DNA of 64,000 nt from an uncultured Winogradskyella sp. GTDB lineage: Bacteria; Bacteroidota; Bacteroidia; Flavobacteriales; Flavobacteriaceae. A program made the translations under genes and the position numbers. Where the stretch lies: positions 1 through 64,000 of the forward strand of contig NZ_CALGNH010000033.1 of assembly GCF_937958655.1 (NCBI RefSeq). The letters are read 5' to 3'. Shown here piece by piece: positions 18,950 through 38,941 of the stretch; the first letter of the stretch is position 1; each line of letters starts with the position of its first letter. The notes beneath the pieces are model-generated. The model was not told the DNA's origin. It did not search any database and worked only from the letters and a program-made list of their open reading frames with translations.

Positions 18950-19858
18950 TTAGTTAAAAAAGTTATTGGTGTATAAATCGGTTGGGTTAATATCCTTTGT
19001 CTCTAAATTATTCGCTTTTATCCAAGCCACAAAATCAGCGATTACTTTCTCATCAATAAAATCCAAATTTTCTTTCGACCCAAAATATGGCAAGCTCAAA
19101 TTTAATGCTTTTCTTAAGTTTATAGTTTTATCCTCTTCACTTAAATATTTAGATAGTATCGCTACCGCATTATCTGGATGGTCTTTGCAATATAAAAACC
19201 CCTCTCTGGTTGCTTTCAGAAAACTACTTATTTGGTCGGGCTTTTTAGAAGCATTTGTTAAACCGCAAGCAATTACTGGCGAATATGAATATGGGACACC
19301 ATAATCTTTCATTTTAAAATAGTTGAATGGGATTGCTGATTGTTCTGCTTCAACCCCTTCCCAATTCATAAAAATCCAAGTAGAATGAGCAACATCCTCT
19401 AAGAGTGTATTCCAAATCCCTAATTTTTCGGGATAAATGATTTTAATGTCCCCTTTACCTCCATCATTTTTAATCATTTCCTTAATTATAGCATCCTCAT
19501 ACCTTGCTTTGTAAGAACTATAAGACTTACCATCTAATCCGCGCGGTCTTTTAATAGTACTACTACTTTTAACTACGATTGCACTAACATCTTCCTGAAA
19601 AATTGCTCCTATCGCAATAAGGTTAAAAGGCTTTTCTTTGGTTTGATAGCTGATTATACTTTCAGTTGGGCAGAGCGCAAAATCTGCTTTGCCCAATTCT
19701 ACTTTTTTTGCTGGTGTTAGCGCGTAATTATCATGCGCTGGATTAATAATGTCTAATTCAATACCCAAGGATTTATAAAACCCTTTTTCTTTTGCTACAA
19801 AAAAACCAATGTGGTTAATATTTGGTGTCCAGTCTAAAGCGAGTTTGAGCGGATTCAT
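18950..19858 (-). CDS. NMT1/THI5-like substrate-binding protein without signal peptide, inside the his operon
   Basis: A 302-residue protein of the NMT1/THI5 or SsuA-type periplasmic-binding fold, beginning [20 protein letters not shown]. The binding-fold features are [12 protein letters not shown] (about 57-68) and a [14 protein letters not shown] loop near 108-121. There is no signal peptide or lipobox, so it is predicted to be cytoplasmic. It lies 2 bases after hisA and 8 before hisF, so it is firmly in the operon. No ABC permease or ATPase gene is in the window. Yeast Thi5 makes a thiamin precursor from histidine, but by my alignment its active lysine and histidine are replaced here by Cys and Ser. 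The real ligand is unknown. Confidence 0.8.
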
Positions 19859-19860
19859 AA

Positions 19861-20670
19861 TTAATTATTTAAAATAAAATGTTCTATTTCTTTTAATGAA
19901 ATTCTGTTCTCGTAAATCGCCTTACCAACAATGACGCCTTCGCAGCCCATTTCAGCTAATTTTGGTAATTCTTCATATTTTGAAATTCCGCCAGAAGCTA
20001 TGAGTTTTATTCCACTTGTCATCATAAGCGCAGTCGAAAGGTCTTTTTCTTTAGTTTGAGATTTCTCGACATCGCTCGAAATGACAGAACACTCATTTAG
20101 AATACGTTTATACAATTTAAATGATGGGCCTTGAAGCATTCCATCTTTAGAAATGTCGGTGCAAATCACATAATTGATTCCCTTAGATTGATAAGCCTTA
20201 ATAAAAGGAATAACCTCTAAATCGCTTTCTTCTTGCCATCCTGAAATGGCAATTTTTCCTCCCGAAGCGTCGGGATTACAATCGGCTCCCAAAATTATTT
20301 TATCGGCTCCAAATTTAGAAATCCAATTTTTGAAAACAGAGGGGTTTTTTACGGCAATACTACCTCCTGTTATCTGATTTGCGCCAGACTCAAAGGCTAT
20401 TTTTAAATCCTCGTCTGACTTTAAACCTCCACCAAAATCTATTTTAAGATTGGTCTTTGTTGCTATAGCTTCTAAAACCTTATAATTTACAATATGGCTT
20501 GCTTTTGCGCCATCTAAATCCACAACATGCAGGTATTGTATGCCTTTATCTTCAAAGGCTTTGGCGACTTCAACCGGATTCTCATTATACACTTTCTTGG
20601 TATCATAATCACCCTTGGTTAAGCGTACACATTGTCCATTAATGATATCTATTGCTGGTATTATTCTCAT
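19861..20670 (-). CDS. hisA: Phosphoribosylformimino-5-aminoimidazole carboxamide ribotide isomerase, with an in-frame repeat insertion
   Basis: A 269-residue HisA, the TIM-barrel isomerase of step 4. The catalytic aspartates are present: D8 in [13 protein letters not shown] and D172 in CTDISKDGM; phosphate loops FGGGL and ASGGI are intact. HisA in related flavobacteria is about 240-245 residues. The surplus is residues about 194-218, between helix 6 and strand 7 (IKLIASGG), and this is exactly a translated hairpin repeat bounded by TGTCA/TGACA. That loop is on the barrel face away from the active site, so the enzyme may well work. A further short stretch, NPDASGG at 132-138, also looks longer than usual and is encoded by a hairpin. 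Confidence 0.95.
20017..20086. repeat. Hairpin repeat inserted inside hisA
   Basis: 70 bases bounded by TGTCA (20017-20021) and TGACA (20082-20086). On the coding strand it begins TGTCATTTCGAGCGATGTCG and continues GAGAAATCT, the same design as the repeats between the his genes. It encodes about 24 residues in frame without a stop. Confidence 0.85.
20260..20275. repeat. Short perfect hairpin within hisA
   Basis: TCCCGA / TCGGGA arms of 6 bp around a 4-base loop, GC-rich against its surroundings. It encodes the NPDASGG loop of HisA, which appears a few residues longer than in relatives I recall. It may be a second, smaller insertion. Confidence 0.45.
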
Positions 20671-20674
20671 ATTT

Positions 20675-20751
20675 ATTTCCCGTGAAAACGGAAATCTTTT
20701 TAAATTAATTATTTAATTCTATTGAGATGCTTCAACAGGCTCAGCATGACA
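20675..20751. repeat. Paired hairpin repeat between hisH and hisA
   Basis: On the minus strand it starts TGTCATGCTGAGCCTGTTGA at 20751, forming a GCTGA/TCAGC-like hairpin followed by ATCTCA. The second half is a TTTCCGT / ACGGGAAA hairpin at 20675-20695. The terminal TGACA of the second half is not preserved. It fills the 92-base gap upstream of hisA. Confidence 0.75.
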
Positions 20752-21356: not shown

Positions 21357-21438
21357 TGTCATTTCGAACTAATGTGAGAAATCTCATTATGAGGTTACTC
21401 TTCGTCCCAATAAATATTGAGCCGCTGTCGGAATAACA
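21357..21438. repeat. Paired hairpin repeat between hisB and hisH
   Basis: Begins TGTCATTTCGAACTAATGTG on the plus strand, followed by GAGAAATCT; the second half, ending GGAATAACA, carries a different arm (TTATTCCG on the minus strand). It ends two bases from the hisB stop, so it fills the gap between the two genes. Confidence 0.75.
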
Positions 21439-24977: not shown

Positions 24978-25035
24978 TGTTATGAGATGCTGAAACAACA
25001 CTTTGACAAGCTCAGTGTAACAATTCGGCATAACA
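24978..25035. repeat. Hairpin repeat between hisG and hisD
   Basis: Bounded by TGTTA (24978) and TAACA (to 25035). Within it a GATGCTGAAAC part and an ACACT/AGTGT hairpin follow the same plan as the repeat downstream of porX. It fills the 71-base gap. Confidence 0.7.
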
Positions 25036-29928: not shown

Positions 29929-29958
29929 TGAGACACTTCGACTGCACTCAGTGTGACA
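29929..29958. repeat. Single hairpin repeat unit downstream of sucD
   Basis: GAGACACTTCGACTGCACTC followed by AGTGTGACA, with a CACT/AGTG hairpin and a terminal TGACA. It is one half of the repeat family seen in the his operon. Confidence 0.65.
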
Positions 29959-38832: not shown

Positions 38833-38850
38833 CAGCAAAATTTGCTGTCA
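38830..38850 (+). terminator. Perfect 10-bp hairpin overlapping the porX stop
   Basis: TGACAGCAAA and TTTGCTGTCA form a perfect palindrome with one central A; the first TGA is the porX stop codon. There is no T-run after it, so it may be a weak terminator or part of the repeat that follows. Confidence 0.55.
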
Positions 38851-38941
38851 TGCTGAACTTGTTTCAGCATCTTATTATAATTTCAAAATCAGTAGAATTC
38901 ATAAAATCCTGAAACAACACTTCGACAAGCTAAGTGTGACA
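38846..38941. repeat. Paired inverted hairpin repeat downstream of porX
   Basis: 96 bases bounded by TGTCA (38846-38850) and TGACA (38937-38941). The first half has TGCTGAA / TTCAGCA followed by ATCTTA; the second is the same kind of unit in the opposite direction, with ACACTT and AAGTGT-like arms. It is the clearest complete two-unit element in the window. Confidence 0.85.

What the first reader, a model, noticed from the sequence alone, without database searches (positions are those of the whole stretch)
20017..20086. Repeat element inserted in frame inside hisA
HisA is about 25 residues longer than relatives. The surplus (residues about 194-218) is encoded by a 70-base hairpin repeat with TGTCA/TGACA ends, the same element as in neighbouring gaps. 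It lies in the loop before strand 7, on the barrel face away from the catalytic aspartates, so the enzyme may tolerate it. This is an example of a mobile repeat contributing protein sequence.
Basis: partly seen in the sequence, partly recalled or inferred. Interest (0 to 1): 0.75.

Follow-up and report, generated by a model that had tools for sequence, protein, structure and literature searches.

The report
Mobile palindrome inside a histidine enzyme
A marine bacterium's histidine-making enzyme HisA carries 24 extra amino acids encoded by a small palindromic DNA repeat, relatives carry different palindromes in the same loop, and these palindromes look like stripped-down versions of tiny, probably mobile, genes for a DNA-cutting enzyme.

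Summary
Confirmed and extended. HisA (window 19861-20670, minus) is 269 aa. 24 of its extra codons are a 70-nt palindromic element (20017-20086) in the loop between helix 6 and strand 7. Fifteen genus members have a 20-codon, empty loop (44 codons here). One arm of the element has 28 copies in this Winogradskyella genome (control pattern 0); five are read in frame in long ORFs (HisA, LeuRS, GlnRS, a PabB-like protein, a membrane protein).
New: the same HisA loop holds recognisable palindromes of several families in 12 of 62 genus loci and in other genera. Coding parts of neighbouring genes in those loci held none in the same scan. Tree tests reject a single carrier clade, so there were repeated gains, losses or replacements.
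Probable source: small free-standing GIY-YIG nuclease ORFs in these genomes lie between inverted copies of the same palindromes (35 of 69 against 0 of 27 control ORFs). Protein subfamily predicts palindrome family (52 of 62). Genomes in which a cognate nuclease was seen hold more arms (median 10 against 2). I read the HisA insert as the ORF-less form of such an element. No movement was shown, and the nuclease may instead be a guest of the palindromes.

The parts
19861..20670 (-). hisA, 269 aa, host gene
   Evidence: TIGR00007; PF00977
20017..20086 (-). 70-nt palindromic element read in frame in hisA
   Evidence: sequence read; 24 codons more than the 20-codon loop of 15 genus members
20059..20086 (-). 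left arm, family A (TGTCATTTCGAGCGATGTCGAGAAATCT), peptide VISSDVEKS
   Evidence: 28 copies in the genome, control 0
20017..20039 (-). right arm (TTTCGACTGCGCTTATGATGACA), resembles the complement of an E-family arm
   Evidence: 3 mismatches to the pattern; 89-90% matches to this end elsewhere in the genome (two read)
20726..20750 (-). related arm, family F, in the hisA-hisH gap
   Evidence: outside ORFs of 100 aa or more
21357..21384 (+). related arm, family A, at the hisH-hisB gap
24997..25021 (-). related arm, family F, outside ORFs of 100 aa or more
29936..29958 (+). related right-arm-like repeat, outside ORFs of 100 aa or more
38847..38940 (.). two related arms, families F2 (38847-38872 +) and F (38916-38940 -), outside ORFs of 100 aa or more

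Best explanation
The 70-nt stretch is an ORF-less copy of a palindromic mobile element that inserted in frame into the alpha6-beta7 loop of HisA, on the barrel face opposite the active site, where the enzyme tolerates it as a disordered loop. SHOWN by comparison: presence against absence in relatives, recurrence of the arms in the genome, different palindromes in the same loop in other species and genera, purifying selection on hisA before the loop. SHOWN as association: many small GIY-YIG nuclease ORFs of the genus sit between inverted arms of the same palindrome families, and nuclease subfamily matches palindrome family. INFERRED: the hisA hairpin (arm, short spacer, inverted arm) is the internally deleted, non-autonomous form of arm-[GIY-YIG ORF]-arm elements. 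The nuclease would cut at its own palindrome, or at a target, and repair would copy the element into the break. In coding DNA only loop insertions without stop codons survive. INFERRED: the enzyme stays active.
For: Insertion. Loop of 44 codons against 20 in 15 genus members. Close pairs differ by the insert: G066 against G069 (dS 0.25, dN 0.009; 60 nt present/absent) and G031 against G003 (dS 0.50, dN 0.002; 36 nt). Recurrence. Scan of 62 genus loci: 13 hits in hisA (12 loci) over 43.4 kb; 2 in 143.9 kb of other ORFs of 120 aa or more, both in the leader before the likely start of hisIE; 30 in 24.9 kb of the rest; 0 in shuffled loci. Of 20 HisA genes picked by hand for length from the listed rows (165 of 199 family genomes had hisA), 7 carry arms in this loop. 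Carriers of family A', of family B and of any insert are each rejected as one clade (AU p 0.00016, 0.009, 0.0002); at least 10 state changes. G075 and G081 differ at 61% of synonymous sites, yet their 27-nt B inserts are identical. GIY-YIG link. Flank inverted repeat score of 14 or more in 35 of 69 GIY-YIG ORFs against 0 of 27 controls, p 6e-7. Nearest GIY-YIG protein at a different locus has the same palindrome family in 52 of 62 (shuffles at most 19); motif-free Mantel rho 0.276 (permuted maximum 0.087). Arm TCGAGCGNAGTCGAGA: 419 copies in 68 genomes, control 0 (summed); 15 genomes in which a cognate GIY-YIG ORF was seen have median 10, 53 others 2, p 5e-5. In G031, G018, G033, G019 and G066, all with a repeat in hisA, such a GIY-YIG element fills the hisH-hisA gap; G003, G069, G073, G074 and G000 lack it. 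Structure. Mean pLDDT 90.1; residues 200-217 under 50; best matches S. enterica HisA, query TM 0.82-0.85.
Against: No target duplication or exact empty site was defined. No element was seen moving. GIY-YIG nucleases are not known (to my recall) to move DNA as transposases do. About half of the GIY-YIG ORFs tested (34 of 69) do not reach the inverted-repeat threshold, and the ORFs were taken from the best-scoring listed hits, not all. The motif labels were made after seeing the flanks; only the Mantel test is free of them. The list of cognate-nuclease carriers is incomplete, three of the 15 show an arm on one side only, and related genomes are not independent. G000's own closest GIY-YIG elements have A-like arms with a different centre (CTTGCC, C2) or E arms (C64), not the exact hisA hairpin. 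In one element (G068, L290) the two exact arms point the same way. A loop of the same length as the B-filled one (e.g. CSNSSGAQSI) is widespread without repeat character, so part of the pattern may be one ancient insertion plus decay. hisA was chosen because of the window copy.
Confidence: 0.66

Rival explanations
1. The palindromes are REPs moved by a RAYT (Y1 tyrosine) transposase; the GIY-YIG link is incidental.
For: The genome has one Y1_Tnp hit, and 31 of 68 genus genomes have one. In-frame REPs are reported elsewhere (PMC3733652, section 15).
Against: Around 30 Y1 loci of the genus (about 1.5 kb each side) the A, B, C, E and F arm patterns were not found, save one arm in L128. The 14 loci with long Y1 frames (492-532 aa) instead carry another palindrome, GACCTGCAAGG. 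The C-type arm core is frequent in genomes without a Y1 hit at E 0.001, for example G036 (9) and G009 (34).
Confidence: 0.12
2. The association is real but reversed: palindromes spread by another route, and GIY-YIG homing nucleases invade the spacer between existing arms as guests.
For: Arm-spacer-arm and arm-ORF-arm have the same anatomy, so the order of events cannot be read from it. GIY-YIG homing endonucleases are known parasites of specific sites (recalled).
Against: Each subfamily tends to keep its own palindrome family at different loci (52 of 62), and arm copy number is higher where a cognate ORF was seen. A guest could show both, but an engine predicts both.
Confidence: 0.25
3. One ancient insertion made a longer loop; later differences are decay, deletion, or gene conversion between dispersed repeats, with no new insertions.
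For: B-type inserts share position, frame and length in eight genus genomes, two of them by eye only, and the non-repeat loop CSNSSGAQSI has the same length. G018 and G031 share a near-identical insert although their hisA dS is 0.9.
Against: A single carrier clade is rejected for A', B and all inserts. C-type inserts lie at different distances from the helix in G066, G178, G111 and Polaribacter. Gene conversion from dispersed copies would itself be repeat-driven turnover.
Confidence: 0.25
4. An ordinary native loop that resembles the repeat by chance.
For: Six family genomes share a 33-34-codon loop (counted after GPS) without recognised repeat.
Against: 28 copies against 0 for the control pattern; 0 hits in shuffled loci.
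Confidence: 0.01

Closest known systems
Rickettsia palindromic elements (RPE; Ogata, Claverie and co-workers)
   Same: Short palindromic repeats between genes and in frame inside unrelated protein genes (passages of PMC10969869; PMC3733652; the original papers were not read).
   Different: Other phylum; here one loop of one enzyme is hit again and again by different families, and there is a candidate mobility gene. None is named for RPE in the passages read.
REP sequences and RAYT transposases (REPtrons)
   Same: Short hairpins in many copies, in pairs, mostly extragenic, some intragenic, with an enzyme gene flanked by its own palindromes (PMC3733652, passages and section 15).
   Different: The associated enzyme is a GIY-YIG nuclease instead of a Y1 transposase; ends are TGTCA/TGACA rather than GTAG. 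PMC3733652 states that the CGTC group of REPs apparently lacks a dedicated transposase (abstract).
MITEs
   Same: Non-autonomous, terminal inverted arms, relation to a longer coding element.
   Different: No target duplication shown; the partner is not a recognised transposase. Some intergenic A hairpins lie inside a larger MITE-like palindrome.
Free-standing GIY-YIG homing endonucleases
   Same: PF01541 domain, about 100 aa, a single small gene.
   Different: Flanked by inverted copies of a palindrome family that also exists without the ORF in many copies.
Same-site intragenic REPs in Xanthomonas recB (PMC3733652, section 15)
   Same: Different REPs at about the same site of one gene in two species.
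   Different: Here several families, more species and several genera.

Membership tests
HisA (TIGR00007) | Score above the curated cut-off; (beta/alpha)8 barrel | tested here: met
   244.3 against 228.95 bits; best fold match S. enterica HisA
RPE-like in-frame palindromic insertion (by behaviour) | Repeat in many genomic copies, some in frame inside protein genes that lack it in relatives | tested here: met
   absence in relatives was tested for hisA only
Rickettsia palindromic elements (as a sequence family) | Sequence homology to RPE families | not tested
   no RPE sequence was compared; Rfam gathering search of the window gave 0 matches
REP/RAYT | GTAG tag at one end | tested here: not met
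   ends are TGTCA and TGACA; in arm copies GTAG is seen only inside the arm
REP/RAYT | RAYT gene flanked by the same repeat | tested here: not met
   30 Y1_Tnp loci scanned; those with long frames carry a different palindrome
MITE | Terminal inverted repeats | tested here: met
   two inverted arms in the hisA copy and in GIY-YIG-bearing relatives
MITE | Target site duplication | tested here: inconclusive
   no relative close enough for a clean empty site
GIY-YIG nuclease (PF01541) | Score above the cut-off for the proposed partner ORFs | tested here: met
   60.1 and 65.6 bits against 22.6
GIY-YIG homing endonuclease | Cleaves an empty allele and is copied into it | not testable with these tools
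   needs biochemistry or crosses

The most novel reading that the evidence does not exclude
Flavobacteria hold a class of mobile element that I did not find in the papers searched: a roughly 100-aa GIY-YIG nuclease between inverted copies of a palindrome it recognises, with each nuclease subfamily paired to its own palindrome. ORF-less copies spread as REP-like hairpins and keep writing new peptides into the loops of essential enzymes, the HisA alpha6-beta7 loop being a recurrent acceptor. It would be an answer, other than RAYT, to what moves REP-like repeats.
Probability: 0.5. Interest if true: 0.9.

Novelty: new variant of a known kind. Interest (0 to 1): 0.76.

Why it matters
In-frame palindromes are described for Rickettsia and some REP-rich genomes, and the 2013 REP survey read here names no dedicated transposase for one of its two large REP groups (PMC3733652, abstract). 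Here a marine genus gives a natural series: one enzyme loop that is empty, filled by several repeat families, or decayed, among species close enough to compare. It also gives a candidate enzyme whose subfamilies match the palindromes. That makes two questions directly testable: how such repeats move, and how often selfish DNA supplies new protein sequence.

Tried and rejected
RAYT as mobiliser: long-frame Y1_Tnp genes of the genus carry a different palindrome. RNA families: no Rfam match in the window. A second in-frame palindrome in HisA (TCCCGACGCTTCGGGA, 20260-20275; 9 exact sites in the genome, control 0) looked like another insertion. The same +4 form of the loop (mostly PDxxGGK) occurs in 5 of 53 named loci that the pattern caught and in L226 and L236, none of the seven with the exact palindrome, four of them within 3 mismatches of it, so I left it open. 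Single ancient insertion: one carrier clade is rejected, gene conversion is not.

Limits. The repeat scan missed carriers: L134 (Polaribacter; its hisA frame has no ATG before the motif) and the decayed L040, L043 and L045 were seen by reading, so its hisA counts are low. Three rows (L011, L021, L063) were not in the tree because the start pattern failed; they were read (loops of 35, 26 and 22 codons). In one search three of 80 named loci could not be parsed. The 20 family genes were picked by hand from a cut list, not ranked by script. The LeuRS inserts were compared with solved LeuRS only, not with relatives.

Papers. PMC3733652: section 15 in full and passages. PMC10969869: passages. Others: search listings and abstract starts only. 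One search found no paper holding both 'GIY-YIG' and 'extragenic palindromic'. The library holds open-access papers only, so absence from print is not shown.

Full report
The observation. hisA lies at window 19861-20670 on the minus strand, between an ORF that reads as hisH and an ORF preceding hisF (names of neighbours from reading). It scores as HisA. Bases 20086 to 20017 on the coding strand read TGTCATTTCGAGCGATGTCGAGAAATCTC...GACCTTTCGACTGCGCTTATGATGACA, 70 nt. The left arm has 28 matches with up to 3 mismatches in the 3.03-Mb genome and none for the reversed control pattern. The other end of the element matches two other places at 89-90%. In the window, nine arms of the superfamily were found against 0.2 per shuffled window; the two in hisA are the only ones inside an ORF of 100 aa or more. 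As a single DNA strand the hisA copy does not fold unusually well (z -1.07).

Five of the 28 arm copies are read through by frames of more than 90 codons, all in the same frame and orientation. They give peptides of the form [VA]-[IT]-[SL]-S-x-[VA]-E-K-S. The proteins are hisA; LeuRS (L085), which carries further repeat-like peptides; GlnRS (L098); a PabB-like protein (L088); a membrane protein (L086). LeuRS and GlnRS are named, the last two from reading. The best solved LeuRS has a gap at the first insert. The GlnRS copy lies beyond the part that matches solved GlnRS. The other 23 copies are in no frame of more than 90 codons. Many of these sit inside a larger palindrome with ends GAGGCTGTCTAAAAAGT / ACTTTTTAGACAGCCTC.

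Empty and filled loops. Of 68 genus genomes, 62 have hisA at E 1e-40. I read 60 rows (59 of the genus plus outgroup G038) and the three that failed there. From GPS to ASGG the loop is 44 codons in the window genome, 40 in G066, 35 in G036 and G017, and 32 in G031, G018 and G073. It is 25-26 codons in 33 rows, 22 in G061, 20 in 15 genus rows and the outgroup, and 19 in six. Filled loops hold different DNA: family A (G000), A' (G036, G017, G031, G018, decayed in G073), B (G033, G019, G008, G075, G081, G086, decayed in G070 and G076) and the C hairpin (G066). Before the loop HisA is under strong constraint: against seven clade members dN is 0.06-0.10, with synonymous sites near saturation. G066 and its sister G069 differ by 0.9% at nonsynonymous sites, yet one has the 60-nt hairpin and the other an empty loop; G031 and G003 likewise. 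G075 and G081 carry an identical 27-nt B insert although 61% of their synonymous sites differ.

Is the loop special? A scan of the 62 genus loci with eight arm patterns gave 13 hits in hisA (12 loci) over 43.4 kb and 2 in 143.9 kb of other ORFs of 120 aa or more. It gave 30 in 24.9 kb of the rest and none in shuffled loci. The two 'other ORF' hits lie upstream of the likely start of hisIE. Single arms in hisA have TGTCA first on the coding strand. For two-armed hairpins orientation says nothing, and out-of-frame insertions could not have appeared as hisA in this scan. Ascertainment matters: hisA was chosen because of the window copy; without that locus hisA still has 12 hits. In 80 named Bacteroidota loci the scan found 3 in hisA (one is G036 again) and 0 in 206.8 kb of other ORFs. 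The other two are Lacinutrix jangbogonensis (L135, B) and Mesonia profundi (L139, A). Reading of the 77 parsed loci adds a full C hairpin in a Polaribacter MAG (L134) and an unrelated palindrome in Candidatus Symbiothrix (L182). Of 199 family genomes, 165 had hisA. I picked 20 by hand for long matches or long frames from the listed rows; 7 of 20 carry arms that the scan recognises, in this loop. One (G175) has nearly the same full hairpin as the window genome, with a loop of the same length. Six others have a 33-34-codon loop (counted after GPS) in which I recognise no repeat.

History. On a tree of 60 HisA proteins without the loop, at least 10 changes among five states are needed, or 9 for insert against none. 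Holding A' carriers (4), B carriers (8) or all carriers (14) together is rejected (AU p 0.00016, 0.009, 0.0002). Some carriers (L040, L043, L045) were assigned by eye. The test does not separate new insertion from gene conversion or recombination limited to the loop. G018 and G031 share a near-identical insert in more diverged genes, which recombination would explain.

Structure. An AlphaFold2 model from 29 sequences has mean pLDDT 90.1. Residues 200-217 are under 50, between alpha6 (184-194) and beta7 (222-226). The closest solved folds are S. enterica HisA. That the loop before beta7 is on the N-terminal face, away from the catalytic residues, is established knowledge of (beta/alpha)8 barrels, not a measurement here.

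What moves it? The one Y1 (RAYT-like) gene found in the genome, and 13 other long-frame ones in the genus, carry a different palindrome (GACCTGCAAGG). Around all 30 Y1 loci scanned the A-F arm patterns were absent except one arm in L128. Reading a genomic copy showed instead a 102-aa GIY-YIG ORF directly between two inverted A-type arms, identical over 26 nt (G000:C2:22339-22729). Of seven places with a small GIY-YIG hit in this genome, I see repeats on both sides in six by eye; L252 has none. By score, L243, L244 and L245 reach 14 and L246 and L247 do not.

Genus test. From listed hits I took 99 loci. In 69 non-redundant small GIY-YIG ORFs (of 87) the 150-bp flanks form an inverted repeat of score 14 or more in 35, against 0 of 27 control ORFs of similar length in the same loci (p 6e-7). 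Mis-paired flanks reach 16 in 3.8%, against 22 of 69 for true pairs. A first pass with 31 ORFs, duplicates included, gave 10 against 0 of 87 at 16. The nearest GIY-YIG protein has the same palindrome family in 54 of the 62 that had a label, out of 68. When pairs that share outer flanks (same locus) are excluded it is 52 of 62, with a shuffled mean of 7.6 and maximum of 19. A motif-free Mantel test agrees (rho 0.276, permuted maximum 0.087). The motif list was made after seeing the flanks, which weakens the first two figures.

Two forms of one element. The arm TCGAGCGNAGTCGAGA occurs 419 times in the 68 genus genomes and never as the reversed control pattern. In the listed, incomplete part I counted by hand 18 close pairs (starts under 60 bp apart); 17 are arm, spacer, inverted arm. 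That is the same order as in GIY-YIG elements such as G018:C11:185302/185667 and G032:C42:70194/70541. In G068 the two exact arms around the ORF of L290 point the same way. The 15 genomes in which a cognate GIY-YIG ORF was seen hold a median of 10 arms, the other 53 a median of 2 (p 5e-5). Each carrier's own element adds up to two, three carriers show an arm on one side only, the list of carriers is incomplete, and genomes are related. In G031, G018, G033, G019 and G066 the hisH-hisA gap is a GIY-YIG element with CTGAACTTGTTTCAG-type arms; in G018 and G019 the ORF is broken by a stop. G003, G069, G073, G074 and G000 have none there. GIY-YIG ORFs were found in 5 of 63 hisA loci, all five carrying a repeat inside hisA. 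They are clustered on the tree, so this is suggestive only.

Verdict. The evidence goes further: a loop that receives palindromes again and again, and a nuclease family that co-varies with the palindromes. What is missing is a demonstration of movement, a clean empty site, and enzyme activity. As a phenomenon it works like Rickettsia palindromic elements; membership in that sequence family was not tested. It fails the RAYT/REP test on its ends and on its partner gene. I file the hisA insert as a new variant of in-frame palindromic insertion and keep the GIY-YIG palindrome element as the boldest reading not excluded.

Noticed in passing
L101:56-1576 (G000:C8, contig start): A Y1/RAYT-like domain (residues 8-120; 20.8 bits, 23.2, cut-off 23) is in one 506-aa frame with HemF (PF01218, residues 205-505), with GACCTGCAAGG-type palindromes upstream and between the two parts. 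Y1 hits in frames of 492-532 aa recur in 20 of 68 genus genomes; HemF was checked only here.
   Followed up: partly
L085:506-3028 (G000:C19): LeuRS carries several repeat-like peptides (MLRQAQHDKRN, SVTSSTVEKSH, MLKQVQHDKK, VTLSAVEGSH) at two places; the first is a gap in the best solved LeuRS.
   Followed up: partly
window 20260-20275: Perfect palindrome TCCCGACGCTTCGGGA inside hisA where this genome alone of the 60 rows read has 4 extra residues; 9 such sites in the genome, control 0. Similar extra residues exist without the exact palindrome in other genera.
   Followed up: partly
L072, L076, L079, L080, L083, L092, L099 and others: Many intergenic A hairpins are nested in a larger palindrome with ends like GAGGCTGTCTAAAAAGT / ACTTTTTAGACAGCCTC, like a MITE.
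   Followed up: no
L182 (Candidatus Symbiothrix): The same HisA loop holds GGAGCGTTGCATGCAACGCCCC, an unrelated palindrome, in a Bacteroidales symbiont.
   Followed up: no
L225, L229, L230, L232, L233, L234: Six family genomes have a 33-34-codon HisA loop (counted after GPS; ETxxGxSGVxD..PxIKL in most) with no recognised repeat; possibly an old, decayed insertion.
   Followed up: no
L246 (G000:C25:156939-157142): A small GIY-YIG ORF next to what reads like tRNA gene sequence, with CCTGTCGGCAGACAGG-like palindromes at both sides.
   Followed up: no
G088:C33:258553-259212; G002:C8:102654-103355; G022:C3:383156-384110: Neighbouring GIY-YIG hits with equal or near scores a few hundred bases apart, as if whole elements had been duplicated.
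   Followed up: no
window 18950-19858: A 302-aa ORF between hisA and hisF that reads like a THI5/NMT1-type substrate-binding protein (recalled, not searched).
   Followed up: no
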